A stretch of 64,000 nt of DNA from Microbacterium sp. T2.11-28 (GTDB lineage: Bacteria > Actinomycetota > Actinomycetes > Actinomycetales > Microbacteriaceae). Of this stretch, positions 23,628 to 38,625 are shown in pieces (within the stretch, counting starts at the first letter, position 1; every line of letters starts with the position of its first letter). The notes below the pieces were generated by a model. That model did no database searches. It was not told where the DNA came from and worked only from the letters and a program-made list of their open reading frames with translations. Position numbers and translations under genes: made by a program. The stretch spans positions 1 through 64,000 of the forward strand of contig NZ_CATNHF010000012.1 of the NCBI RefSeq assembly GCF_950097975.1, in the 5' to 3' direction.

Positions 23628-24928
23628 GCGGGTGGGGAGCGGTGCTCGATGCCGCCCGGCCCGAGCGCTCCGGCACGGTCTCGCGGGTGGTCGGACTGGG
23701 CGTGGAGGTCCGCGGCCTGATCGGCGCGGTCGGCGACCTCGTCAGCATCGGCGGCGGCGAAGCGGAGGTCGTCGCCGAGGTCGTGGCGGCCGAGAAGGGC
23801 GCCCTGCGCTGCATGCCGCTGTCGACGACCGACGGGCTGCGCGTCGGAGAGCGGGCGCGATCGATGTCGGGCCGGCTGCGGGTGCCGATCGGTCCCAGCG
23901 TGCTGGGTCGCGTCATCGACGGCCTCGGCCGCCCCATCGACGATCGCGGGCCGATCGCCGCGCTCCGGGTGGGCCTGGATCACGAGCCGCCCTCCGTCAT
24001 GGAGCGCACGCGCATCGCGGAGCCGCTCGCCACGGGCGTGCGGGCGATCGACACCCTCGTCCCCCTCGGCCGCGGCCAGCGCCTGGGACTGTTCGCCGGC
24101 TCGGGCGTCGGCAAGTCGTCGCTGCTGTCGATGATCGCCCGCGGCTCGGCCGCCGACGCGAACGTGATCGCCCTCGTCGGAGAGCGCGGGCGTGAAGTGC
24201 GCGAGTTCATCGAGGACGACCTCGGCCCCGAGGGCCTCGCCCGGTCGGTCGTCGTGGTCTCCACCTCCGACCAGCCGGCCCTCGCCCGACTGCGCGCCGC
24301 GTCGACGGCGACGCGCATCGCCGAGGCGTTCCGGGACGCCGGCGGGCACGTCATGCTCATGATGGACTCCCTCACCCGCGTGGCCATGGCCCAGCGCGAG
24401 ATCGGGCTGGCCGCCGGGGAGCCGCCCGCGACCCGCGGCTATCCGCCTTCGACGTTCCCCGTGCTGGCGGGTCTCCTCGAGCGGGCCGGCACCGACCGGC
24501 AGGGCTCGATCACGGGCGTCTACACGGTGCTCGTCGAAGGCGACGACCACAACGAGCCGGTCGCCGACACGGTCCGCTCCATCCTCGACGGGCACCTGGT
24601 GCTCGACCGCGCCCTCGCGATCACCGGTCACCATCCGGCCATCGACGTGCTCGGGTCGGTCTCGCGGCTGGAGGGGAAGGTCGCGGGGACCGCCCAGCGG
24701 GAGCTCGCGTCGCGGCTGCGCACCGTCCTGGCCGCCCGCCAGGACGCGCGCGACCTCATCGGCATCGGCGCCTACCGCGCCGGAGCCGACCCGCGCGTGG
24801 ACGCGGCGCTCGCGCACGAGCGCGCCATCACCGCCTTCCTCACGCAGCCGCTGGACGAGCGGGCCGTGCCCGACGATTCCCTGCGCCGGCTGAGGGAGCT
24901 CGTCGACGCCTTCGGAGATCTCTCATGA
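23624..24928 (+). CDS. fliI: Flagellum-specific ATP synthase FliI
   Basis: A 434-residue type III export ATPase. Walker A is GLFAGSGVGKSSLLS, Walker B VMLMMDSLTRVA, with GERGREVREFIEDDLG and the YPPSTFPVLAGLLERAGT stretch shared with F1-beta-type ATPases. Energises unfolding and release of export substrates at the gate. Overlaps fliH and fliJ by four bases each. Confidence 0.97.
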   Translation: MSGWGAVLDAARPERSGTVSRVVGLGVEVRGLIGAVGDLVSIGGGEAEVVAEVVAAEKGALRCMPLSTTDGLRVGERARSMSGRLRVPIGPSVLGRVIDGLGRPIDDRGPIAALRVGLDHEPPSVMERTRIAEPLATGVRAIDTLVPLGRGQRLGLFAGSGVGKSSLLSMIARGSAADANVIALVGERGREVREFIEDDLGPEGLARSVVVVSTSDQPALARLRAASTATRIAEAFRDAGGHVMLMMDSLTRVAMAQREIGLAAGEPPATRGYPPSTFPVLAGLLERAGTDRQGSITGVYTVLVEGDDHNEPVADTVRSILDGHLVLDRALAITGHHPAIDVLGSVSRLEGKVAGTAQRELASRLRTVLAARQDARDLIGIGAYRAGADPRVDAALAHERAITAFLTQPLDERAVPDDSLRRLRELVDAFGDLS

Positions 24929-25374
24929 GCCGCGCCTTCCCGCTCGCCGGACTCCTGCGCGTGCGCGGCCTCCAGGAACGCGCCGCCGCCGAGCGCCTGT
25001 CGCGCGCGGCGCTGGAGCACGCCCACACCGAGGCCCGGGACCGTCAGCTGCGCGCATCGCTGACCTCGTCGGCCGAAGGACCCGAGGACGTCCGCACCCT
25101 GGCTGCCCTCGCGGCCAGTCGCGTGGCCGCCCGGAGCCTGCTGTCCGATCTGCGCACGCTCCAGGACGCGCAGGCGGAGGCCCTCGGCGCCGCGCGGGCC
25201 GAGCACGCGAGCGCGCGGGTCGAGGAGCACGGACTCAGCCGGCTCGCCGAGGCGCACGCGCGGCGCGAGCACGCCCGGGTGCTGCGCGAGGAGCAGGCAG
25301 CCCTCGACGAGGTCGCCGCGCGACCCGCTGCGCACTCCGCGCCCACGACGTCCCCGACGGAGGAGCCCTCATGA
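24925..25374 (+). CDS. fliJ: Flagellar export protein FliJ
   Basis: A 149-residue helical protein: FPLAGLLRVRGLQERAAAER at the start and a second long charged helix (GLSRLAEAHARREHARVLRE) as in the two-helix coiled coil of FliJ, the central stalk of the export ATPase. Poorly conserved family, so assignment relies also on position after fliI. Confidence 0.88.
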   Translation: MSRAFPLAGLLRVRGLQERAAAERLSRAALEHAHTEARDRQLRASLTSSAEGPEDVRTLAALAASRVAARSLLSDLRTLQDAQAEALGAARAEHASARVEEHGLSRLAEAHARREHARVLREEQAALDEVAARPAAHSAPTTSPTEEPS

Positions 25375-26948
25375 CCCTGGTCGCCGCCCTCGGGCGCATC
25401 GACGACATCCAGCAGCGCATCCGGAGCCTGTCGCCGGAGCCGGTGGTGACCGACGCGGCCGCCGCGACGACGGGCACCACAGGCGGCGCCACGAGCGCCA
25501 GCGCGTCCGCCTTCGCCTCGGCCGTGCGCGACGCGGGCGGAGTGGGCGAGGTCCCCACCCTTCCCGCAGGGCCGGTGGACGGCGGCGACATCGTGGCGCA
25601 GGCGAAGCAGTACCTCGGCGTGCCGTATGTCTTCGGCGGCGAGGACCGCTCGGGGATGGACTGCTCCGGCCTGGTGCAGCGGGTGCTCGCCGACCTGGGC
25701 ATCGACGCGCCGCGGGTCGTGCAGGACCAGGCCGACATCGGCGTCGAGGTGCCCTCGCTCGCCGATGCCCGCCCCGGCGACCTCATCGTCACCAAGGGCG
25801 AGGGCCACATCGTCATCTACGCCGGCGACGGCATGGTGATCCACGCCCCCAGCCCCGGCAAGCACGTGGAACTGCGCGACAACTGGCTGAAGGATGCCGA
25901 CATCGCCACCATCCGCCGCGTCGTGCCGCCGCCGGGTGAGGGCGGCGCCGCCGCCGGTATCGCCGCCGTGTCCGGGCTTCCGGCGTCGGCCGTGCCCGCG
26001 CTCTCCGTCCCGGCGCTGTCGGCCGCCGTGTCGTCCCCCACGTCGATGGCCGCCGCCGCCCGCACCGCTCTCGCGGCTGTCCCCGTGGCGTCGCGATCCG
26101 CGGACGCCGGCGGGGTCGCCGACGCGCTCGCCTCCCTCATCGCCGCCGCGTCCGCCCCTTCCGGGGTCGCCGCCTCCGAAGCCGCCGCCTCCGAAGCCGC
26201 CGCCTCCAGAGACGGGGCCGCGGGGGCCGGGGTCGCCGCCCTCGCCGCTGCCGGCGGATCGACGACCGCCGCCGCGTCACCGGCGACCGCGGCCGCGGCA
26301 CCGACGACGCCCGCCGTGTCGCCGGCGCCCGCCGAAACGGTGGCCTCGCCGTCCGCCGTCGCCGCCGCGGCGGGGCTCACGCCGTCCGCCGTGACGTCGG
26401 GTGCGGGCGTCGCGGCGCCGGCTGCCCCGGCTCCGCCGGCCGCCACCCCGCCGGCTCCGCTCGCTCCGCAGCTCACCACCCCGCTCGTGTCGCTGGCCCG
26501 CAGCGGCCAAGGCGAGCACACGCTCACGCTGCGCGTCTCGCCCGAGGACCTGGGTCCCGTCACCGTCAAGGCGCGCATCACCGGGTCATCCGTCACGATC
26601 GAGCTCGCCTCGGGCACCGTCGCCGGGCGCGACGCGCTGCGCGCGCTGCTGGTGGACCTTCGGCGCGACCTCGCCGTCCTCGTCCCGCACTCCTCGATCG
26701 CCGTCACGACCGCCGACGCGCCCCGCGGCGACCAGCTCGCGACCGGCACCGGCGGCTCGTCGGGCGGGGCCTCCGGCGCCTCGACGTCGGGCCAGCCGTT
26801 CGGGCAGGGCGGGTCCGACGGATCCGGGCGCGAGCGGGCGACGCCGCCCGCGCCTGCGGCGCCCGTCCTCCCGCCCTCCGCGGACGCCCTGCCGCTCCCC
26901 GCGCCGACCGCCGCCAGCGCGGCGACCGGCATCGACCTGTTCGCCTGA
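25371..26948 (+). CDS. fliK: FliK hook-length control protein fused to an NlpC/P60 peptidase domain
   Basis: A 525-residue two-part protein. Residues about 70-185 are an NlpC/P60 (C40) peptidoglycan endopeptidase: AKQYLGVPYVFGGEDRSGMD with catalytic Cys98 in MDCSGLV, His146 in EGHIVIYAG and His158 in MVIHAP. Residues about 190-375 are a low-complexity Ala/Ser/Pro/Thr region with a tandem EAAAS repeat. Residues about 380-450 match the Flg_hook (FliK C-terminal) domain: HTLTLRVSPEDLGPVTVKAR and DALRALLVDLRRDLAVLV. The reading frame is unbroken. Flg_hook domains set hook length and switch export specificity; the hydrolase part could open the cell wall for the rod or hook, replacing FlgJ-type muramidase, which is absent. 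Confidence 0.88.
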   Translation: MTLVAALGRIDDIQQRIRSLSPEPVVTDAAAATTGTTGGATSASASAFASAVRDAGGVGEVPTLPAGPVDGGDIVAQAKQYLGVPYVFGGEDRSGMDCSGLVQRVLADLGIDAPRVVQDQADIGVEVPSLADARPGDLIVTKGEGHIVIYAGDGMVIHAPSPGKHVELRDNWLKDADIATIRRVVPPPGEGGAAAGIAAVSGLPASAVPALSVPALSAAVSSPTSMAAAARTALAAVPVASRSADAGGVADALASLIAAASAPSGVAASEAAASEAAASRDGAAGAGVAALAAAGGSTTAAASPATAAAAPTTPAVSPAPAETVASPSAVAAAAGLTPSAVTSGAGVAAPAAPAPPAATPPAPLAPQLTTPLVSLARSGQGEHTLTLRVSPEDLGPVTVKARITGSSVTIELASGTVAGRDALRALLVDLRRDLAVLVPHSSIAVTTADAPRGDQLATGTGGSSGGASGASTSGQPFGQGGSDGSGRERATPPAPAAPVLPPSADALPLPAPTAASAATGIDLFA

Positions 26949-26963
26949 CCCCCGAGGAGACCC

Positions 26964-27377
26964 ATGCCCGTCGAATCCGTCACCGCCGCGGCGGTCGCCA
27001 CCGCGGCGACCAGCACCGCCGCACCCCCCAAGAAGGCGCTCGACGCCGAGGTGTTCCTGCAGCTGCTCGTCGCCCAGATGAAGAACCAGGACCCGAGCTC
27101 GCCACTGGACACCAACGAGATGATGGCCCAGACCACGCAGCTGGCGATGATGGAGCAGCTGACCGCCCTGGCCGACACCTTCACCGAGAGCTTCGCGCTC
27201 AGCATGCGCCAGACCGCCGCCGCGCTCGTCGGCACCCAGGCGTCCTACGTCGACGCCGACGGCGTCACCCGCACGGGCCTCGTCAGCAAGGTCTCGTTCG
27301 AGAACAGCATCCCCCTCGTCACCATCGGCGACACCACCGTTCCGCTCGACGCCGTGTCGGGCATCACCGCTTCCTGA
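26964..27377 (+). CDS. flgD: Flagellar hook-capping protein FlgD
   Basis: A 137-residue FlgD. The conserved N-terminal region is EVFLQLLVAQMKNQDPSSPL followed by DTNEMMAQTTQLAMMEQL; the C-terminal Tudor/FnIII cap domains of enterobacterial FlgD are missing, leaving a short form. Works as scaffold for hook assembly. Located 15 bases after the fliK fusion with GAGGAG ribosome site. Confidence 0.95.
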   Translation: MPVESVTAAAVATAATSTAAPPKKALDAEVFLQLLVAQMKNQDPSSPLDTNEMMAQTTQLAMMEQLTALADTFTESFALSMRQTAAALVGTQASYVDADGVTRTGLVSKVSFENSIPLVTIGDTTVPLDAVSGITAS

Positions 27378-27400: not shown

Positions 27401-28558
27401 ATGCTCCGTTCGCTCTACGCCGGCATCTCCGGCCTCCGCTCCCACCAGACCATGCTCGACGTGACCGGCAACAACATCGCCAACGTCAACACCATCGGCT
27501 TCAAGGCGGGCTCCGTCCAGTTCCAGGACACGCTCTCGCAGATCGTGCAGAACTCCCGCGCCCCGCAGGAGGGTGCCGCAGGCTCCAACGCCGCGCAGGT
27601 CGGTCTCGGCACCCAGATCGCCGCGATCCGCACCAACTTCGCGCAGGGATCCGCGCAGACCACCGGCGTCCCGACCGACCTGATGGTCGCCGGCGACGGA
27701 TTCTTCGTCGTCCGCAAGGGCGCCGAGACGCTCTACACGCGCAACGGCGGCTTCTCGTTCGACTCCGCCGGCCGCCTCGCGACCGCCGACGGCGCGCTCG
27801 TGCAGGGATGGACGGCCACCGACGGCGTCATCGCGACCGGCTCCCCGATCGGCACGGTCGCGCTCCCGGTCGGCGCGACCTCGCCCGCCGTCGCGACCGG
27901 CGGCGCCACGGTCACCGGCAACCTGCCCGCCGACGCCGCCGCCGGCGAGCAGATCGTCCGCGACATCACCGTGTACGACGCGGACGGCGCCGCGAGCCAG
28001 CTCACGCTCACCTTCACCCGCACCGCCGCCGGCTGGGACGTCACCGACGGCACCGCGACGACCTCGCTCGCCTTCACGAACGGCGCGCTCACCGCCCCGG
28101 CGTCGCTCACGGCAGGGGCCGTCACCGTCGACCTGTCGGCCCTCACCGGCTTCGCCAACCTCCGCACGGTCGCGATCACCGGGCAGGACGGTCGCGCCTC
28201 CGGCGCCCTCGTCTCCTACACGCTGACCGCCGACGGGAGTCTCGTGGGCTCGTTCAGCAACGGCGCCACCGAGGTGCTCGCCCAGATCGCCCTGGCATCC
28301 TTCGACAACCCCGAGGGGCTCGAGAAGGCCGGCTCCTCGCAGTACCGCGTGGGCGCGAACTCCGGCGCGGCGCAGGTCGGCGTCGCCGGCAGCGACGGAC
28401 TCGGCGACCTCGTCAGCGGCGCGCTCGAGATGTCGAACGTCGACCTCTCGCAGGAGTTCACGAACCTCATCGTCGCCCAGCGCGGCTTCCAGGCGAACGC
28501 CCGCATCATCACGACGAGCGACGAGGTGCTGCAGGAGCTCACCAGCCTCAAGCGCTGA
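27401..28558 (+). CDS. flgE: Flagellar hook protein FlgE
   Basis: A 385-residue hook protein. N-terminal rod/hook motif RSLYAGISGLRSHQTMLDVT with GNNIANVNTIGFKAGS, FlgE D1 features TDLMVAGDGFFVVRKGAETL and YTRNGGFSFDSAG, and the C-terminal VDLSQEFTNLIVAQRGFQAN followed by ARIITTSDEVLQELTSLKR. Because flgF and flgG are missing from the window this protein might also contribute rod-like subunits, but length fits the hook. Confidence 0.95.
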   Translation: MLRSLYAGISGLRSHQTMLDVTGNNIANVNTIGFKAGSVQFQDTLSQIVQNSRAPQEGAAGSNAAQVGLGTQIAAIRTNFAQGSAQTTGVPTDLMVAGDGFFVVRKGAETLYTRNGGFSFDSAGRLATADGALVQGWTATDGVIATGSPIGTVALPVGATSPAVATGGATVTGNLPADAAAGEQIVRDITVYDADGAASQLTLTFTRTAAGWDVTDGTATTSLAFTNGALTAPASLTAGAVTVDLSALTGFANLRTVAITGQDGRASGALVSYTLTADGSLVGSFSNGATEVLAQIALASFDNPEGLEKAGSSQYRVGANSGAAQVGVAGSDGLGDLVSGALEMSNVDLSQEFTNLIVAQRGFQANARIITTSDEVLQELTSLKR

Positions 28559-32861: not shown

Positions 32862-33311
32862 CTGGACGATCTGCTTCTCGGCGTCCGCGTCGTCGTCTCG
32901 CTCGCGGCGGTCCTGGCGGTCGTCTGGCTGCTGCAGCGCCGTGTCGCCCGCGGCGCGGCGAAGGAGCGCGCGCGCGACGCGGTGCGGGTGATCGCCCGGC
33001 GCGGCCTCGGTGCCAAGGCGCAGGTCGTCGTGGTCGAGATCGACGACGTCCGCTACGTCCTGGGCATCGGCGACGGTGCCGTCTCGGTGATCGACCGCGC
33101 TCCGGCGGAGGCCGCGGCCGGCGCCGCCATCGCGCCGCTCACCGCGCTCCCGGCCCGGCCCGCGCCGATCGAGGCCGCCGATCCTGCCGCTCCCCTGCCG
33201 GCGCGCCGCAGTCTCCGCGCCGAGCAGCGCACGGCCTCCCGCGCGGCCTCCCGCACGCCGTCGCTGCCGCGGGATGCCGCCCAGGCGCTGCGCCGGGCGC
33301 TCGGCGCCTGA
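32862..33311 (+). CDS. fliO: Flagellar biosynthesis protein FliO, CTG start
   Basis: A 149-residue FliO-type protein if read from the CTG at 32862. That start gives (M)DDLLLGVRVVVSLAAVLAV with a membrane helix (about residues 5-26), then VIARRGLGAKAQVVVVEIDD and VRYVLGIGDGAVSVID, the FliO cytoplasmic core. There is no ATG, GTG or TTG in frame before GTG 32982, which would delete the membrane helix. GGAGG at 32851-32855 stands six bases before the CTG. An Ala/Arg-rich tail follows. Assists FliP assembly in the export gate. One-base overlap with fliP. Confidence 0.78.
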   Translation: MDDLLLGVRVVVSLAAVLAVVWLLQRRVARGAAKERARDAVRVIARRGLGAKAQVVVVEIDDVRYVLGIGDGAVSVIDRAPAEAAAGAAIAPLTALPARPAPIEAADPAAPLPARRSLRAEQRTASRAASRTPSLPRDAAQALRRALGA

Positions 33312-34132
33312 TGGGTGCCGGGCGCGTGAGGACTCGGGGGCGCCGAACGGCCGCGCGGGCCGGGATGGCCACGGCGCTGTCGCTCGGACTGATCGCGCTG
33401 CAGGCGGTGACCGTGCCGGCCGCCCACGCCGACGCGATCGATCCCACCCCGGCGCCCCCGACCGGGGTGACCGTCGACATCAACGGCATCGACGGCACGC
33501 CGTCGGCGTCGATCCTCACCCTCATCGGCATCACGCTGCTGTCGGTGGCGCCCGCGCTCCTGCTCATGATGTCGTCGTTCACGAAGATCTTCGTGGTGCT
33601 CGCGATGACGCGGAACGCCCTGTCGCTGCCCACGATCCCGCCGAACCAGGTGCTCGCCGGGCTGTCGCTGTTCCTGACGCTGTTCATCATGTGGCCGGTC
33701 CTCACCGAGATCAACACGATCGCCGTCCAGCCCTACACCGACGGCGGCCTCACCTTCACCGACGCCGTCACGGCCGCCTCGGATCCGCTGCGCACCTGGA
33801 TGCTGGCCTACACGCGCGAGGAGGACCTCGCCCTGATGACGAGGTTCTCGGGCGGCGAGAACCCGGACGACCCGGCGAGCACCCCGCTCATCACGCTCAT
33901 CCCGGCGTTCATGATCTCGGAGCTGCGCGCCGCCTTCATCATCGGGTTCGTCATCTTCGTGCCGTTCCTGGTCATCGACCTCGTCGTGGCCGCCGCGCTC
34001 ATGTCGATGGGCATGATGATGCTGCCGCCGGTCATGATCTCGCTCCCCTTCAAGATCCTGCTGTTCATCCTGGTCGACGGCTGGGGCCTGATCCTGCGCA
34101 CGCTGATGCAGAGCTATGCGGGGGGCGGATGA
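33311..34132 (+). CDS. fliP: Flagellar export gate protein FliP
   Basis: A 273-residue gate protein with an N-terminal signal-like segment (about residues 18-42, ending AAHA) and four membrane segments. Family hallmarks are LLMMSSFTKIFVVLAMTRNA, IPPNQVLAGLSLFLTLFIMW, TPLITLIPAFMISELRAAFI and SMGMMMLPPVMISLPFKILL. Forms the FliPQR export channel. Overlaps fliQ by four bases. Confidence 0.97.
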   Translation: MGAGRVRTRGRRTAARAGMATALSLGLIALQAVTVPAAHADAIDPTPAPPTGVTVDINGIDGTPSASILTLIGITLLSVAPALLLMMSSFTKIFVVLAMTRNALSLPTIPPNQVLAGLSLFLTLFIMWPVLTEINTIAVQPYTDGGLTFTDAVTAASDPLRTWMLAYTREEDLALMTRFSGGENPDDPASTPLITLIPAFMISELRAAFIIGFVIFVPFLVIDLVVAAALMSMGMMMLPPVMISLPFKILLFILVDGWGLILRTLMQSYAGGG

Positions 34133-34404
34133 ACCCCGAAGCCGTCCTCGACATCGCCCTCGAGGGCGTGATGATCACCGCGAAGCTCGCCGCCCCGCTG
34201 CTGGTCACCGCGCTCGTCGTCGGCTTCGCGATCTCGCTCCTGCAGTCGATCACGCAGATCCAGGAGGTCACGCTCTCGTTCGTCCCGAAGGCGATCGCCG
34301 TCGGGGTCGCCCTCGTGGTGTGCGGCAACTGGATGATCACCGAGGCCGTCACCTTCACCCACGCCCTGTTCGACCGCATCCCGCAGCTGCTGAGCGGCGG
34401 ATGA
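34129..34404 (+). CDS. fliQ: Flagellar export gate protein FliQ
   Basis: A 91-residue two-helix protein: AVLDIALEGVMITAKLAAPL then LVVGFAISLLQSITQIQEVT, LSFVPKAIAVGVALVVCGNW. Matches the family in length and motif (QxITQIQExTLSFVPK). Stop is followed by a duplicated GATGACGGG sequence before fliR. Confidence 0.96.
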   Translation: MNPEAVLDIALEGVMITAKLAAPLLVTALVVGFAISLLQSITQIQEVTLSFVPKAIAVGVALVVCGNWMITEAVTFTHALFDRIPQLLSGG

Positions 34405-34442: not shown

Positions 34443-35204
34443 GTGGACATCCCCATCGACTTCGCGTGGCTGGAGGCCACGGGCCTCGCCGCCGCACGGA
34501 TCACCGCGTTCCTCTTCCTCGCACCGCCCTTCTCGTACCGCGGCTTCCCGACGCGCATCAAGGCGGCGCTGGGCGTGGGCCTGGCCGTCGCCATGAGCGG
34601 CACCGTCGCGCCGGGCTACACGCCGCTGGACTCGGGCGCGTTCCTCCTCGCCCTGCTCGCGCAGCTCGTGACGGGCGCCCTGCTCGGCTTCCTCGTGACC
34701 GTGTGCTTCGCGGCCGTCCAGTCGGCGGGCGGCCTCATCGACCTGTTCGGCGGATTCCAGCTGGCCCAGGCGTTCGATCCGCAGATGAACGTCAGCGGCG
34801 CGCAGTTCACGCGGCTGTTCCAGATGGTGGCCCTCGCGCTCCTCATCTCCTCGAACGGCTATGCGCTGATCCTCGCCGGACTCGCGCGGAGCTTCTCGGC
34901 CGTCCCGGTCGACGGCATGCTCACCCTGGAGCGGCCCGCCGAGCTGCTGATCGACACCGCCGCGCAGCTGCTGCTGGCCGCCGTCCAGATCGCCGGGCCG
35001 CTCCTGCTGGTCCTGTTCCTGGCCGACATCGGCCTGGGCCTCGTCAGCCGGGTCGCCCCGGCCCTGAACGCGTTCGCCATGGGCTTCCCCGTGAAGATCA
35101 TGCTCACCCTGGTGCTGGCGGGCACCGTGATCCTCGCGCTCCCCGCCGTCGTCAGCGCGCTCACCGAGGATGCCGTCGGGCTGCTGATCGGGGGTGCGCG
35201 ATGA
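34443..35204 (+). CDS. fliR: Flagellar export gate protein FliR
   Basis: A 253-residue polytopic protein with about six membrane segments. Family features: FLFLAPPFSYRGFPTRIKAA, LLGFLVTVCFAAVQSAGGLI with DLFGGFQLAQAFDPQMN, and LVSRVAPALNAFAMGFPVKI. Start is GTG 34443 (MDIPIDFAWLEATGLAAAR); no good ribosome site because the region just upstream is a duplication. Overlaps flhB by four bases. Confidence 0.95.
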   Translation: MDIPIDFAWLEATGLAAARITAFLFLAPPFSYRGFPTRIKAALGVGLAVAMSGTVAPGYTPLDSGAFLLALLAQLVTGALLGFLVTVCFAAVQSAGGLIDLFGGFQLAQAFDPQMNVSGAQFTRLFQMVALALLISSNGYALILAGLARSFSAVPVDGMLTLERPAELLIDTAAQLLLAAVQIAGPLLLVLFLADIGLGLVSRVAPALNAFAMGFPVKIMLTLVLAGTVILALPAVVSALTEDAVGLLIGGAR

Positions 35205-36292
35205 GCGATGCCGACAGCGGCGAGCGCACCGAGATGGCCTCGCGCCGGCAGCTGCGCGAGGCCTACCGCAAGGGCCGGATCACCCGGAGCCAGGACATGT
35301 CCGCGTGGATCGCGATCGGCGCGTTCTGCGTCATGCTGCCCGCTCTGATCGGCGCGGGCGCCGACGCCGGCACCGAGCAGTTCGTGGGGATCGCGTCGAT
35401 CATCCGCAGTCCCGACGTCGACGACGCGCTCGCGCTGCTGTCCTCGGCCCTCGGGCACATCCCCGCGATCATCGGCACGACGCTCGGGACCGTCTCGATC
35501 GTCGTGCTGATCATCTCCGTGGTGCAGGGCGGGGTGCACCTGCGCGGCGTGCCGGCTCGGTTCGAGCAGTTCAATCTGATCACGGGGATCCAGCGGCTGT
35601 TCGGGCTGCAGGCCCTGTGGGAGGGCGTCAAGGCGCTGCTGAAGACGGCGGCGATCGGCCTCGCGCTCTACGTCGTCGTCGCGGGCCTCATGCCGCTGCT
35701 CGTCACCAGCGGCGCCGCGCCCGTGAGCCGCCTGCTCGAGGTGGCCGCCTCGGGCATCGCGGGCCTGCTGATGACGGCTGTGGCGGTCGGCATCGCCCTC
35801 GCCCTCGCCGACGTCCTCGTCGTCGCCCGCCGCAACCGCAAGCACACGCGCATGACCAAGAAGCAGGCGCGCGACGAGCACAAGAGCAGCGAGGGCGACC
35901 CCCTCATCCGCAGTCAACGCCGCGCGCGGCAGATGGCCATGAGCCGCAACCGCATGATCGCCGCCGTCGGGGACGCCGACGTCGTGCTCGTGAACCCGAC
36001 CCACGTCGCGGTCGCCCTGCGCTACGAGCCCGGCAAGGCGGCGCCCCGCGTGGTCGCGAAGGGCAAGGGCGTGGTGGCCGAGCGCATCCGCGATCGCGCG
36101 ACCGAGGCCGGCGTGCCCCTGGTGCGCGACATCCCGCTCGCCCGCGCGCTCCACAGCGCGTGCGAGCTCGGCCAGGAGATCCCGGCCGACCTGTACACCG
36201 CCGTCGCACGCATCCTCGTGTTCGTCGACGGCCTCAAGCGTCGCGGCTCGGCCCGCGGCGTGCACACCGTCCCGGAGAGGAAGGCGCCATGA
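35201..36292 (+). CDS. flhB: Flagellar export switch protein FlhB
   Basis: A 363-residue protein with four membrane segments and a cytoplasmic domain that cleaves itself at NPTH (in DVVLVNPTHVAVALRYEPGK). The N-terminus GERTEMASRRQLREAYRKGR is the family export-gate segment. Switches export from hook to filament substrates together with the FliK C-terminal domain. Starts at ATG 35201 overlapping fliR; overlaps flhA by four bases. Confidence 0.97.
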   Translation: MSDADSGERTEMASRRQLREAYRKGRITRSQDMSAWIAIGAFCVMLPALIGAGADAGTEQFVGIASIIRSPDVDDALALLSSALGHIPAIIGTTLGTVSIVVLIISVVQGGVHLRGVPARFEQFNLITGIQRLFGLQALWEGVKALLKTAAIGLALYVVVAGLMPLLVTSGAAPVSRLLEVAASGIAGLLMTAVAVGIALALADVLVVARRNRKHTRMTKKQARDEHKSSEGDPLIRSQRRARQMAMSRNRMIAAVGDADVVLVNPTHVAVALRYEPGKAAPRVVAKGKGVVAERIRDRATEAGVPLVRDIPLARALHSACELGQEIPADLYTAVARILVFVDGLKRRGSARGVHTVPERKAP

Positions 36293-38361
36293 AGGGCATC
36301 CTGAAGAAGTCCGCGATCCCGGTCGCCGTCGTCGGCATCATCATGCTGCTGATCGTGCCGGTGCCCCCGCCGGTGCTCGACGTGCTGATCATCACGAACA
36401 TCCTGTTCGCGCTGCTGATCCTCCTCACGACGATGTTCGTGCGGAAGCCGCTCGACTTCTCGGTGTTCCCCTCGCTGCTGCTGGTCGCCACGCTGTTCCG
36501 GCTCGGGCTCAACGTCGCCTCCACCAAGCTCGTGCTCGGCGAGGCGCACGCCGGCCAGGTGATCGACGCGTTCGGCGCCATCGCCGTCGGCGGATCGCTC
36601 GTGATCGGCATCGTCGTCTTCCTCATCCTCATCGTGATCCAGTTCGTCGTGGTCACCAAGGGCGCCGAGCGCGTCGCCGAGGTGGGTGCGCGGTTCACCC
36701 TCGACGCCATGCCGGGCAAGCAGATGGCGATCGACGCCGACCTCAACGCCGGACTCATCACCGACGCCGAGGCCCGCGCCCGGCGCGCCGAGATCGCCGC
36801 CGAGGCCGACTTCTACGGCGCGATGGACGGCGCATCGAAGTTCGTCAAGGGCGACGCGATCGCCGGCCTGGTGATCATCGTCATCAACCTCGTCGGCGGC
36901 ATCGCCATCGGCCTCATGTCGCACGGCATGGAGATCGACGAGGCGCTCAGCACCTACGCGATCCTGACGATCGGCGACGGCCTGGTCACCCAGATCCCCG
37001 CGCTGCTGATGGCCGTCGCGACCGGCATGATCGTGACGCGCTCCAACGCCGAGGCCGACATGGGCACCTCGGCGGCGGGCCAGCTCGGCCAGTCGCGCAC
37101 GGCGCTCCTCATCGCCGGCGGCGCCGCGATCGCCATGTCGTTCATCCCCGGCATGCCGATGCTCGCCTTCCTCGTGATCGGGGGTCTGCTGCTGCTCATC
37201 GCCCAGCGCGTCGGGGCGGCGGAGCAGCGGGCGCAGGAGGAGGCGCCGGCGGCCGAGACGCGGGCCGCGGACGCGCCGGAGGAGCTGGCCGAGCGCATGC
37301 GCGTGCACACCCTCGAGATCCTGCTCGCGCCCGACATCGTCGACCTCGTCACCGGCGGCCCCGACGACCTGCTGGGTCGCGTGAAGTCGCTGCGGCGCAA
37401 GACCGCCGTGGAGATGGGGCTCATCGTCCCGCCGGTCCGCACGCGCGACAGCATCGAGCTTCCCGCGTCGACCTACGTCATCCGGGTCGCCGGCGTCGAG
37501 GCCGGTCGCGGCGTGGCGCCGCGCGGATCGATGCTCGCGCTCGGCACCGCGCTCGACGCGCTCCCCGGCGCCGCCGCCCCCGACCCGGTCTTCGGCATCG
37601 AGGGCAAGTGGGTCCCGCTGCAGATGCGTCACACCGCCGAGCTGTCGGGCGCCACGGTCGTGGACCGCGCGAGCGTGATCATCACGCACCTGTCGAGCAT
37701 CATCCAGGCCCACGCCTCCCGGCTCCTCAGCCGCGAGGACGTGCGCCAGCTCACCGAGGGCCTGCGCCAGACGAGCCCCGCCGCCGTCGAGGAGCTCACC
37801 CCGGCGCTGCTGTCGCTGGCGGAGATCCAGCGCGTGCTGCAGGGGCTGCTCGCCGAGCGCGTCGCCGTCAACGACCTGGTGCGGATCTACGAGGCGCTGG
37901 CGCTGCGCGCCAAGACCTCCACCGAGCCGGAGGGGCTGATCGAGGCGGCGCGCGCCGCCCTCGGCCCGGCCGTCGCCGCCCGCTTCGCGGAGAACGGGCG
38001 TCTGCGCATCGTGATGATCGATCCGCTGCTCGAGCAGTCGATGCTCGAGTCGCTGCGGCCGGCCGAGGACGGCATGCACATCGCCCTCGACCCGCGCCGG
38101 CTCGAAGCGGTCATCGCGTCGACGAAGGCGGCCGTCGAGGGCGCCGGCCCCGGCGCCGAGCCTGTGCTGGTGTGCGCGCCGTCGCTGCGCACCGCCGTAC
38201 GCCGACTGGTGTCCACCCAGACCGACGGCCTGCCGGTGCTGTCGTACACCGAGGCGACCGCCGGGGGTCTCGCGATCGACACGATCGGGATCGTCCGCGA
38301 CGCGGTCCCCGAGCCGCACGCGATCGAGGCGGGATCGTCGGCGGGCGCGGTGGGAAAGTAG
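36289..38361 (+). CDS. flhA: Flagellar export gate protein FlhA
   Basis: A 690-residue protein. About eight N-terminal membrane segments with the FHIPEP-family stretches FVRKPLDFSVFPSLLLVATL, FRLGLNVASTKLVLGEAHAG, RFTLDAMPGKQMAIDADLNA and DFYGAMDGASKFVKGDAIAG; a cytoplasmic C-terminal ring domain from about residue 325 with LLSREDVRQLTEGLRQTSP. Last large gene of the fliM operon; ends 9 bases before csrA. No flhF or flhG follows. Confidence 0.97.
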   Translation: MKGILKKSAIPVAVVGIIMLLIVPVPPPVLDVLIITNILFALLILLTTMFVRKPLDFSVFPSLLLVATLFRLGLNVASTKLVLGEAHAGQVIDAFGAIAVGGSLVIGIVVFLILIVIQFVVVTKGAERVAEVGARFTLDAMPGKQMAIDADLNAGLITDAEARARRAEIAAEADFYGAMDGASKFVKGDAIAGLVIIVINLVGGIAIGLMSHGMEIDEALSTYAILTIGDGLVTQIPALLMAVATGMIVTRSNAEADMGTSAAGQLGQSRTALLIAGGAAIAMSFIPGMPMLAFLVIGGLLLLIAQRVGAAEQRAQEEAPAAETRAADAPEELAERMRVHTLEILLAPDIVDLVTGGPDDLLGRVKSLRRKTAVEMGLIVPPVRTRDSIELPASTYVIRVAGVEAGRGVAPRGSMLALGTALDALPGAAAPDPVFGIEGKWVPLQMRHTAELSGATVVDRASVIITHLSSIIQAHASRLLSREDVRQLTEGLRQTSPAAVEELTPALLSLAEIQRVLQGLLAERVAVNDLVRIYEALALRAKTSTEPEGLIEAARAALGPAVAARFAENGRLRIVMIDPLLEQSMLESLRPAEDGMHIALDPRRLEAVIASTKAAVEGAGPGAEPVLVCAPSLRTAVRRLVSTQTDGLPVLSYTEATAGGLAIDTIGIVRDAVPEPHAIEAGSSAGAVGK

Positions 38362-38370
38362 TCTGATCGA

Positions 38371-38625
38371 GTGCTGGTTCTGACGAGACGGATCGGTGAG
38401 CGCGTGCTCATCGGCGACGACATCGAGCTCACGGTGGTGGAGATCCGCGGCGACAGCGTGCGCCTCGGCATCCAGGCCCCCCGTGAGACGCGCATCCAGC
38501 GCGCCGAGATCGTCGCCGCGGTCGAGACCGAGAACCGGTCGGCCGCCGAGGGCTCCGCCGATCAGGAGCAGGCGCTGCTGCAGGCGCTCGCGGCACGGCG
38601 AAGCCCCGCCGCAGACGCCGACTGA
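38371..38625 (+). CDS. csrA: Carbon storage regulator / translational repressor CsrA
   Basis: An 84-residue CsrA starting at GTG 38371: LVLTRRIGERVLIGDDIELT then VVEIRGDSVRLGIQAP. The RNA-contacting residues LTRR at the start and the C-terminal RLGIxAP strand are present; the tail after residue 55 is Glu/Ala-rich. Probably represses fliC translation through the GGA sites in the fliC leader, opposed by FliW. Last gene of the flagellar cluster, convergent with znuA 35 bases away. Confidence 0.95.
   Translation: MLVLTRRIGERVLIGDDIELTVVEIRGDSVRLGIQAPRETRIQRAEIVAAVETENRSAAEGSADQEQALLQALAARRSPAADAD

What the first reader, a model, noticed from the sequence alone, without database searches (positions are those of the whole stretch)
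25371..26948. FliK fused to an NlpC/P60 peptidoglycan hydrolase
Seen: one unbroken 525-codon frame carrying a C40 peptidase core (Cys98, His146, His158) then a low-complexity linker, then a Flg_hook domain. Known: Flg_hook controls hook length and triggers the FlhB switch; rods and hooks need a wall opening, usually made by a FlgJ muramidase, absent here. Inference: the hook ruler carries its own wall hydrolase, perhaps exported through the flagellar system and acting at the growing rod or hook.
Basis: partly seen in the sequence, partly recalled or inferred. Interest (0 to 1): 0.82.

Follow-up and report, generated by a model that had tools for sequence, protein, structure and literature searches.

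The report
Flagellar hook ruler carrying wall-cutting enzyme
In a Microbacterium-like bacterium one gene encodes both a predicted flagellar hook-length protein and an intact-looking cell-wall-cutting enzyme domain, and the joint protein is predicted to be sent out through the growing flagellum, where it would likely open the wall just where the hook has to pass.

Summary
The fusion is real. Window 25371-26948 is one 525-codon frame: predicted N-terminal helix, an FxxxV motif, an NlpC/P60 core (Cys98 and His146 invariant), a predicted disordered linker, and the FliK switch domain. Both domains recur in 45 of 93 homologues; trees suggest several fusions; no separate FliK start is visible. Relatives explain it: at 39 of 48 FliK loci of the family, and 19 of 20 informative further loci of the class, a separate NlpC gene (13 of those 19 with SLT) sits just before fliK. 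These enzymes lack a Sec-like hydrophobic stretch (0 of 48) and carry an FxxxPhi pattern like that of flagellar early export substrates (47 of 48, against 0 of 30 non-flagellar NlpC proteins). So a flagellar wall hydrolase was joined to FliK, apparently replacing FliK's N-terminal half at a FliK-like overall span. Best reading: it is exported with the ruler and opens wall for the hook, export ending when FliK trips the FlhB switch. Export, activity and need are untested. Against strict need: of 47 informative FliK loci of the genus, 30 lack the enzyme and 9 keep only its tails.

The parts
25371..26948 (+). fliK-NlpC fusion gene, 525 aa
   Evidence: unbroken frame; Pfam domains; homologues with the same architecture
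25359..25365 (+). ribosome-binding site GGAGGAG ahead of the ATG; start overlaps the fliJ stop by 4 bp
   Evidence: sequence read; fliJ frame 24925-25374
25377..25430 (+). predicted N-terminal helix, residues 3-20 (LVAALGRIDDIQQRIRSL), similar by eye to the start of stand-alone flagellar NlpC and NlpC+SLT enzymes; predicted export signal part 1
   Evidence: sequences side by side; predicted helix; function inferred
25512..25526 (+). FASAV, residues 48-52: FxxxPhi motif, predicted gate-recognition motif (export signal part 2)
   Evidence: 47 of 48 loci enzymes against shuffled mean 9.3, 0 of 30 non-flagellar NlpC; function inferred
25617..25877 (+). NlpC/P60 (C40) peptidase core, residues 83-169
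   Evidence: Pfam 68.5 bits; fold match
25662..25664 (+). Cys98, predicted nucleophile
   Evidence: invariant in 40 of 40 fused proteins
25806..25808 (+). His146, predicted catalytic base
   Evidence: invariant in 40 of 40 fused proteins
25842..25844 (+). His158, predicted third catalytic residue (Glu in some fused relatives)
   Evidence: His in 35, Glu in 10 of 45
25920..26459 (+). Ala/Pro/Ser-rich linker, predicted disordered; no Phe; no start codon with a ribosome-binding site
26499..26675 (+). Flg_hook (FliK switch) domain core, residues 377-435
   Evidence: Pfam 33 bits; matches FliK 2rrl and PscP 5cuk
24925..25374 (+). fliJ (TIGR02473, 24.8 bits, below its cut-off of 50.45), upstream neighbour
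26964..27377 (+). flgD, hook cap
27401..28558 (+). flgE, hook; the only FlgE/F/G-class match above the cut-off in the genome

Best explanation
The gene encodes a FliK-type protein, predicted to be the flagellar hook-length ruler, whose N-terminal half appears to have been replaced by an NlpC/P60 cell-wall peptidase domain, and the single polypeptide is predicted to leave through the flagellar type III channel and to cut peptidoglycan where the growing hook meets the wall. Proposed steps: (1) the N-terminal helix and FASAV motif would dock the protein at FlhB as an early substrate (inferred from pattern); (2) the protein would be threaded out unfolded, intermittently like FliK of Salmonella, and the NlpC core would refold outside the membrane (inferred); (3) it would cleave stem peptides next to the growing structure (inferred). 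The genome gives no match for FlgF, FlgG or FlgJ (shown at the thresholds used), so it is probably the hook itself, on a short FlgB/FlgC rod, that must cross the wall, which would make the hook stage the right time for a hydrolase (inferred); (4) when the hook is long enough, the FliK domain would switch FlhB to late substrates, which would also end export of the hydrolase, so wall cutting would be dosed and shut off by the ruler (inferred). History, read from comparison: the enzyme was first a separate gene just before fliK and was fused to fliK, apparently more than once.
For: One frame, both domains. Neighbours are fliF-G-H-I-J and flgD-flgE. Separate NlpC gene between fliI/fliJ and fliK at 39 of 48 family FliK loci, fused at 2; present at 19 of 20 informative further loci of the class (18 of 19 outside the family), 13 with SLT. 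Export signature: FxxxPhi within 75 residues before the core in 47 of 48 loci enzymes (1000 shuffles: mean 9.3, max 18), 19 of 19 in the further loci (90 residues), 0 of 30 non-flagellar NlpC proteins of the family; hydrophobic stretch (KD15 at least 1.9) in 0 of 48 flagellar against 27 of 30 non-flagellar. Own early substrates have the like: FlgD FLQLL at 31, FlgE FQDTL at 41; in Salmonella the motif lies at FlgD 36-40 (PMC8983047, passages) and FlgE 39-43 (PMC10936197, passages). No Phe in this protein's linker, so the motif that unfused FliKs have near their start (39 of 40 and 40 of 44) is gone here. No usable start in the linker at 6 of 6 fused loci. FliK-like span: N-terminus to switch motif median 345 fused against 336 in FliKs of loci without the enzyme (p=0.21) but 380 beside a separate enzyme (p=0.0003). 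Enzyme core has lower dN than the FliK domain in 10 of 10 pairs of 5 fused genus genes. Only PF00877 match of the genome; in 197 genus genomes the 8 matches above 70 bits all lie at fliK. No FlgJ, FlgF, FlgG match.
Against: No experiment. In the genus, of 47 informative FliK loci (48 less one at a contig edge) 30 have neither enzyme nor remnant and 9 only its tails, so hooks are presumably built there without it, by unknown means; five informative family loci also lack it, as does one class locus (L249). One genus locus without the enzyme (L164) lies inside the own fused clade of the FliI tree. The FxxxPhi form of the motif is recalled (Evans 2013), not read in a call. FlgC of this window has no such motif, and L191 among the enzymes lacks it. 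18 of 45 fused proteins do have an FxxxPhi in the linker, so loss of FliK's own motif is not general. A folded domain of some 110 residues must unfold to pass the channel. 46 of 48 genus genomes with FliK carry a weak SLT match elsewhere; the own genome and G229 do not reach the threshold.
Confidence: 0.6

Rival explanations
1. The fusion is mainly a genetic accident of two neighbouring genes: the enzyme still cuts wall for rod or hook insertion and FliK still measures, but a protease separates them before or after export, so there is no functional link between ruler and hydrolase.
For: In relatives fliK overlaps the end of the enzyme gene by 4 bp at 35 of 42 loci, so a small change could join them; the fused label changes at least 3 times on the FliI tree and at least 4 on the NlpC tree; low-confidence linker.
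Against: Fusion persists over many Microbacterium-type proteins; the FliK part is short (median 168 residues from core to switch motif) and the whole span FliK-like; in this protein the FliK part has no FxxxPhi motif of its own.
Confidence: 0.22
2. The NlpC domain is a structural or wall-anchoring part of the ruler (binding, not cutting), for instance marking the wall as a start point for measurement.
For: A non-catalytic NlpC/P60 wall protein exists (RipD, 4jxb, in the fold list); at 9 loci the core is missing and the tails kept, so parts other than the enzyme matter; the third residue varies.
Against: Cys98 and His146 invariant in 40 of 40 fused proteins; the core is better conserved than the FliK domain; 13 of 19 separate homologues of the further class loci pair it with an SLT lytic domain.
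Confidence: 0.1
3. The protein stays in the cytoplasm and the NlpC domain acts on recycled muropeptides or on a protein partner, FliK acting from inside.
For: No Sec-like stretch; NlpC/P60 members with other substrates exist (recalled).
Against: Operon position and export-like N-terminus shared across the class; FliK of Salmonella is secreted (PMC9307174, passages).
Confidence: 0.05

Closest known systems
FlgJ, dual-domain (beta/gamma-proteobacteria)
   Same: Flagellum-dedicated wall hydrolase joined to a second assembly function in one protein (PMC8517470, passages); export through the flagellum is recalled
   Different: FlgJ joins a rod scaffold domain to a glucosaminidase; here a switch domain is joined to a C40 peptidase. 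No Rod-binding or Glucosaminidase match in the genome
FliK
   Same: Flg_hook domain on the C-terminal side, gene between fliJ and flgD, FliK-like span
   Different: Unfused FliKs of relatives have a low-complexity N-terminal half; here an enzyme stands there
[quoted passage not shown]
   Same: Same operon slot; listed there as a transglycosylase SLT protein and raised together with the flagellar genes
   Different: Separate gene with SLT; its function is not discussed in the passages seen
Flagellar SLT enzyme BB0259 of Borrelia burgdorferi (PMC8517470, passages)
   Same: Dedicated wall opening for flagella without a dual-domain FlgJ
   Different: Modelled there as Sec-exported; different enzyme class; not joined to a ruler
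Phage tail tape-measure proteins with lytic domains (PMC10194240, abstract in listing and passages)
   Same: Length ruler and wall hydrolase in one polypeptide
   Different: GH23 transglycosylase in those described; no homology claimed; convergent at most

Membership tests
FliK | Flg_hook (switch) domain above the curated cut-off | tested here: met
   33 bits, cut-off 29.8; fold match to FliK 2rrl
FliK | gene in the flagellar operon, only Flg_hook match of the genome | tested here: met
   one match in the own genome, operon neighbours
FliK | sets hook length and switches FlhB | not testable with these tools
   needs mutants
NlpC/P60 (C40) peptidase | domain above the curated cut-off with Cys and His in place | tested here: met
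   68.5 bits, cut-off 23; Cys98, His146 invariant
NlpC/P60 (C40) peptidase | cleaves peptidoglycan stem peptides | not testable with these tools
   no assay
FlgJ | Rod-binding domain (PF10135) | tested here: not met
   no match in this protein or genome
FlgJ | Glucosaminidase (PF01832) or SLT domain | tested here: not met
   not in this protein; no match in the genome
early flagellar export substrate | hydrophobic N-terminus plus gate-recognition motif near residues 30-50 | tested here: inconclusive
   pattern present and conserved; docking not testable here

The most novel reading that the evidence does not exclude
A self-limiting wall drill: in actinobacteria that have lost FlgF, FlgG and FlgJ the hook itself bores through the thick wall, and the hook ruler brings the cutting enzyme through the same channel, so that the length switch that ends hook growth also ends wall cutting. 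It is the flagellar counterpart of the phage tape-measure protein that carries its own lysin, and it rests on an overlooked class-wide family of flagellum-exported NlpC and NlpC-SLT hydrolases.
Probability: 0.42. Interest if true: 0.86.

Novelty: new variant of a known kind. Interest (0 to 1): 0.74.

Why it matters
How actinobacterial flagella, which in the later classes lack FlgJ, FlgF and FlgG, get through a thick wall is named as an open question in a survey of which passages were seen (PMC10746217; the words NlpC and transglycosylase do not occur in its main text). The loci here give a concrete candidate, an operon-encoded NlpC or NlpC-SLT enzyme with an early-substrate-like N-terminus, and in the fused species a single gene whose point mutants would separate wall passage from hook-length control. 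It also gives a natural experiment: relatives with separate, fused, core-less and missing enzyme.

Tried and rejected
Sequencing artefact or frame joining: rejected (45 of 93 homologues have both domains). Separate translation of FliK from inside the gene: looked for and not seen (10 in-frame start codons from residue 185 to 373, one of them ATG, none with a ribosome-binding site; none with one in the linker of 5 other fused loci). Two in-frame starts further up, codons 26 and 96, do have a partial site; they would shorten the enzyme, not free FliK. 'Fusion is general to the genus': rejected, 5 of 48 FliK loci are fused. 'FliK's own export motif is always lost in fusions': rejected, 18 of 45 fused proteins have an FxxxPhi in the linker. 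'The genome has no SLT protein': held only as a threshold result, since 46 of 48 genus genomes with FliK show a weak match of 21.9-29.1 bits away from fliK. 'His158 is a fixed triad residue': rejected.

Limits and rows dropped. P0049 (756 aa, frame looks disturbed) was left out of the 45 fused proteins (P0001-P0045, near-copies included) but kept in the tree. A1 holds 40 of them (P0002, P0015, P0017, P0018, P0020 left out). L094 and L112 were left out of the FliK length and motif counts (start unsure); 3 of 44 and 5 of 40 unfused FliKs had no switch motif for the span count. Contig-edge loci L076, L099, L169, L246, L256 are left out of informative counts. L255 among the further class loci is of the own family. 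The 30 non-flagellar NlpC controls are the 30 loci given for the best matches, not a random draw; that none lies by fliK was judged by eye from coordinates; their hydrophobicity was taken over the whole stretch before the domain, that of the flagellar ones over 100 residues. The SLT profile was built from 3 sequences. Start codons picked by the rule were often wrong, so motif counts use the frame upstream of the core. Likeness of the N-terminal helices was judged by eye, not counted. Trees are quick searches with SH-aLRT only; the tool warns that three changes may be one gain and two losses, that L116 is a long branch meeting another, and that the NlpC tree has few columns. The pairs are not independent. 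Presence of FliK was taken as presence of flagella; no swimming data were seen.

Literature: no paper on a FliK-NlpC fusion was among those listed by the searches (3 of 3 listed; 20 of 37; 15 of 20; 15 of 70; 8 of 8; 10 of 153; 10 of 27); open-licence papers only, and of the papers listed only the ones cited here were opened, in passages.

Full report
What is there. The frame at 25371-26948 is intact and 525 codons long. Pfam finds NLPC_P60 at 83-169 and Flg_hook at 377-435, both above their cut-offs. AlphaFold2 on a 40-row alignment gives a mean pLDDT of 63 with two folded domains (blocks of ten residues at 61-94 over 71-190 and 81-95 over 361-450), predicted helices at 3-20 and 40-54, and a low-confidence linker of about 180 residues. 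Foldseek matches the first domain to NlpC/P60 structures and the second, more weakly, to FliK and PscP switch domains. The gene overlaps fliJ by 4 bp, has a GGAGGAG site, and is followed by flgD and flgE.

Is it real and how common. Of 93 homologues, 45 have both domains; where a source gives a name these are Microbacterium, Ruicaihuangia and Gryllotalpicola. A 525-aa copy with 98% identity sits on a 3.2-Mb Microbacterium contig. In whole genomes: 48 of 149 family genomes have a Flg_hook match; at their loci 39 have a separate NlpC gene between fliI/fliJ and fliK, 2 are fused (own and G139), 7 have none, two of these at contig edges. In the genus 48 of 197 genomes have a Flg_hook match, 39 of them over the curated cut-off: 5 fused including the own one, 3 separate, 40 without the enzyme, one of them at a contig edge. 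In the class, 25 of 196 genomes have a match; of the 22 loci not already held, 20 are informative and 19 have the enzyme (18 of 19 outside the family), 13 of them with an SLT domain behind it.

Origin. A FliI tree of 92 loci needs three changes for the fused label, as many as its starred branches force: the own clade (which also holds L164, without enzyme), a second genus lineage (L162) beside a species with separate genes (L148), and G139, a long branch. An NlpC tree, poor in columns, needs seven and at least four, and puts the Gryllotalpicola-type fusions beside separate genes of other genera. I read this as a neighbouring enzyme gene fused to fliK more than once; the tool warns that three changes may be one gain and two losses. 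In relatives the two genes overlap by 4 bp at 35 of 42 loci.

Export signature. By eye the flagellar versions begin with a similar short stretch (pattern like ALGRIDDIQQRI) and then have an FxxxPhi motif in an otherwise variable linker; in A1 Phe48 is at least 90% conserved. Within 75 residues before the core the motif occurs in 47 of 48 loci enzymes, against a shuffled mean of 9.3 and maximum of 18 in 1000 shuffles (L191 lacks it), and within 90 residues in 19 of 19 of the further class loci. Of 30 non-flagellar NlpC proteins of the family none has it within 75 residues, and 27 have a hydrophobic stretch of Sec or membrane type, which 0 of 48 flagellar ones have. The window's FlgD and FlgE have FLQLL at 31 and FQDTL at 41; FlgC has none. 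In Salmonella early substrates carry a hydrophobic N-terminus and a gate-recognition motif, FlgD 36-40, and FliK export is weakened when non-polar residues at its N-terminus are removed (PMC8983047, passages); the FlgE motif lies at 39-43 (PMC10936197, passages). The FxxxPhi form of the motif is recalled. Unfused FliKs have such a motif in their first 70 residues in 39 of 40 (separate class; 500 shuffles: mean 5.4, max 13) and 40 of 44 (no-enzyme class; mean 8.4, max 16). The window protein has no Phe in its linker, so its only candidate signal of this kind is the enzyme's; 27 of 45 fused proteins lack FxxxPhi there and 18 have one.

Ruler and enzyme. From the N-terminus to the switch motif the fused proteins span a median of 345 residues (n=45, near-copies included), FliKs of no-enzyme loci 336 (n=41, p=0.21), FliKs beside a separate enzyme 380 (n=35, p=0.0003); from the end of the core to the motif there are only 168. 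So the enzyme seems to stand in the place of FliK's N-terminal half rather than to be added to it. In 10 of 10 pairs among 5 fused genus genes dN is lower in the NlpC core than in the FliK domain, and Cys98 and His146 do not vary in 40 proteins: the enzyme looks maintained.

Need. The genome has one FlgE/F/G match above the cut-off, FlgE, no Rod-binding match, no Glucosaminidase match. The survey of actinobacterial flagella reports FlgF, FlgG and FlgJ absent in later classes and asks how so simple a rod is assembled in a thick wall (PMC10746217, passages). In the genus, PF00877 is found in 18 of 197 genomes and the eight matches over 70 bits are exactly the ones at fliK. Against a strict need, 30 informative genus loci have neither enzyme nor remnant, and nine have a 108-134-residue gene that keeps the N-terminal stretch, the FxxxPhi motif and a C-terminal tail like that of the intact enzyme of L178, with the NlpC core missing. 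How these species open the wall is unknown; weak SLT matches away from fliK occur in 46 of 48.

Mechanism. FliK of Salmonella is an intermittently secreted ruler that switches FlhB (PMC9307174, passages). A hydrolase on the same chain would be delivered intermittently during hook growth and stop when the switch is thrown. With no FlgF/FlgG rod, the hook would be the part crossing the wall. These steps are inferred. Shown are anatomy, conservation, context and the absence of a visible separate start; the history is read from trees of moderate support.

Comparison. In working principle it is like dual-domain FlgJ, but it fails FlgJ's defining domains. It is a FliK by domain and place, and an NlpC/P60 by domain and residues. 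Phage tape-measure proteins with lytic domains (PMC10194240, abstract in listing and passages) are a parallel in design, without homology. The separate gene has been listed in print as nlpC in the Actinosynnema flagellar operon (PMC9019756, passages); among the papers listed by the searches none is on the fusion.

Noticed in passing
L174, L175, L177, L181, L186, L187, L188, L192, L193 (between fliJ and fliK): Nine genus members carry a 108-134-aa stub gene: like the flagellar NlpC enzyme without its catalytic core, with N-terminal stretch, FxxxPhi motif and C-terminal tail kept. It suggests that the tails have a job of their own.
   Followed up: partly
genus genomes: NlpC/P60 domains are rare in the genus outside the flagellar locus: 10 of 197 genomes have one elsewhere, at 21.7-57.5 bits (one of them under the cut-off). 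A link with the cross-link type of these walls is only recalled.
   Followed up: no
L086, L087, L091, L095, L096: Five family genomes outside the genus with FliK also lack the enzyme next to fliK.
   Followed up: no
L235-L255: At 13 of 19 further class loci the enzyme slot holds an NlpC plus SLT two-domain protein with the same N-terminal pattern, a likely flagellar double hydrolase.
   Followed up: partly
window 33274-34404 and 35194-38361: Pfam matches for fliQ and flhA lie far inside long open frames (fliQ at residue 291 of 376, flhA at 382 of 1055), so the listed starts are probably too early.
   Followed up: no
window 38371-38625: A csrA gene lies right behind flhA, next to a ZnuA gene on the other strand.
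   Followed up: no
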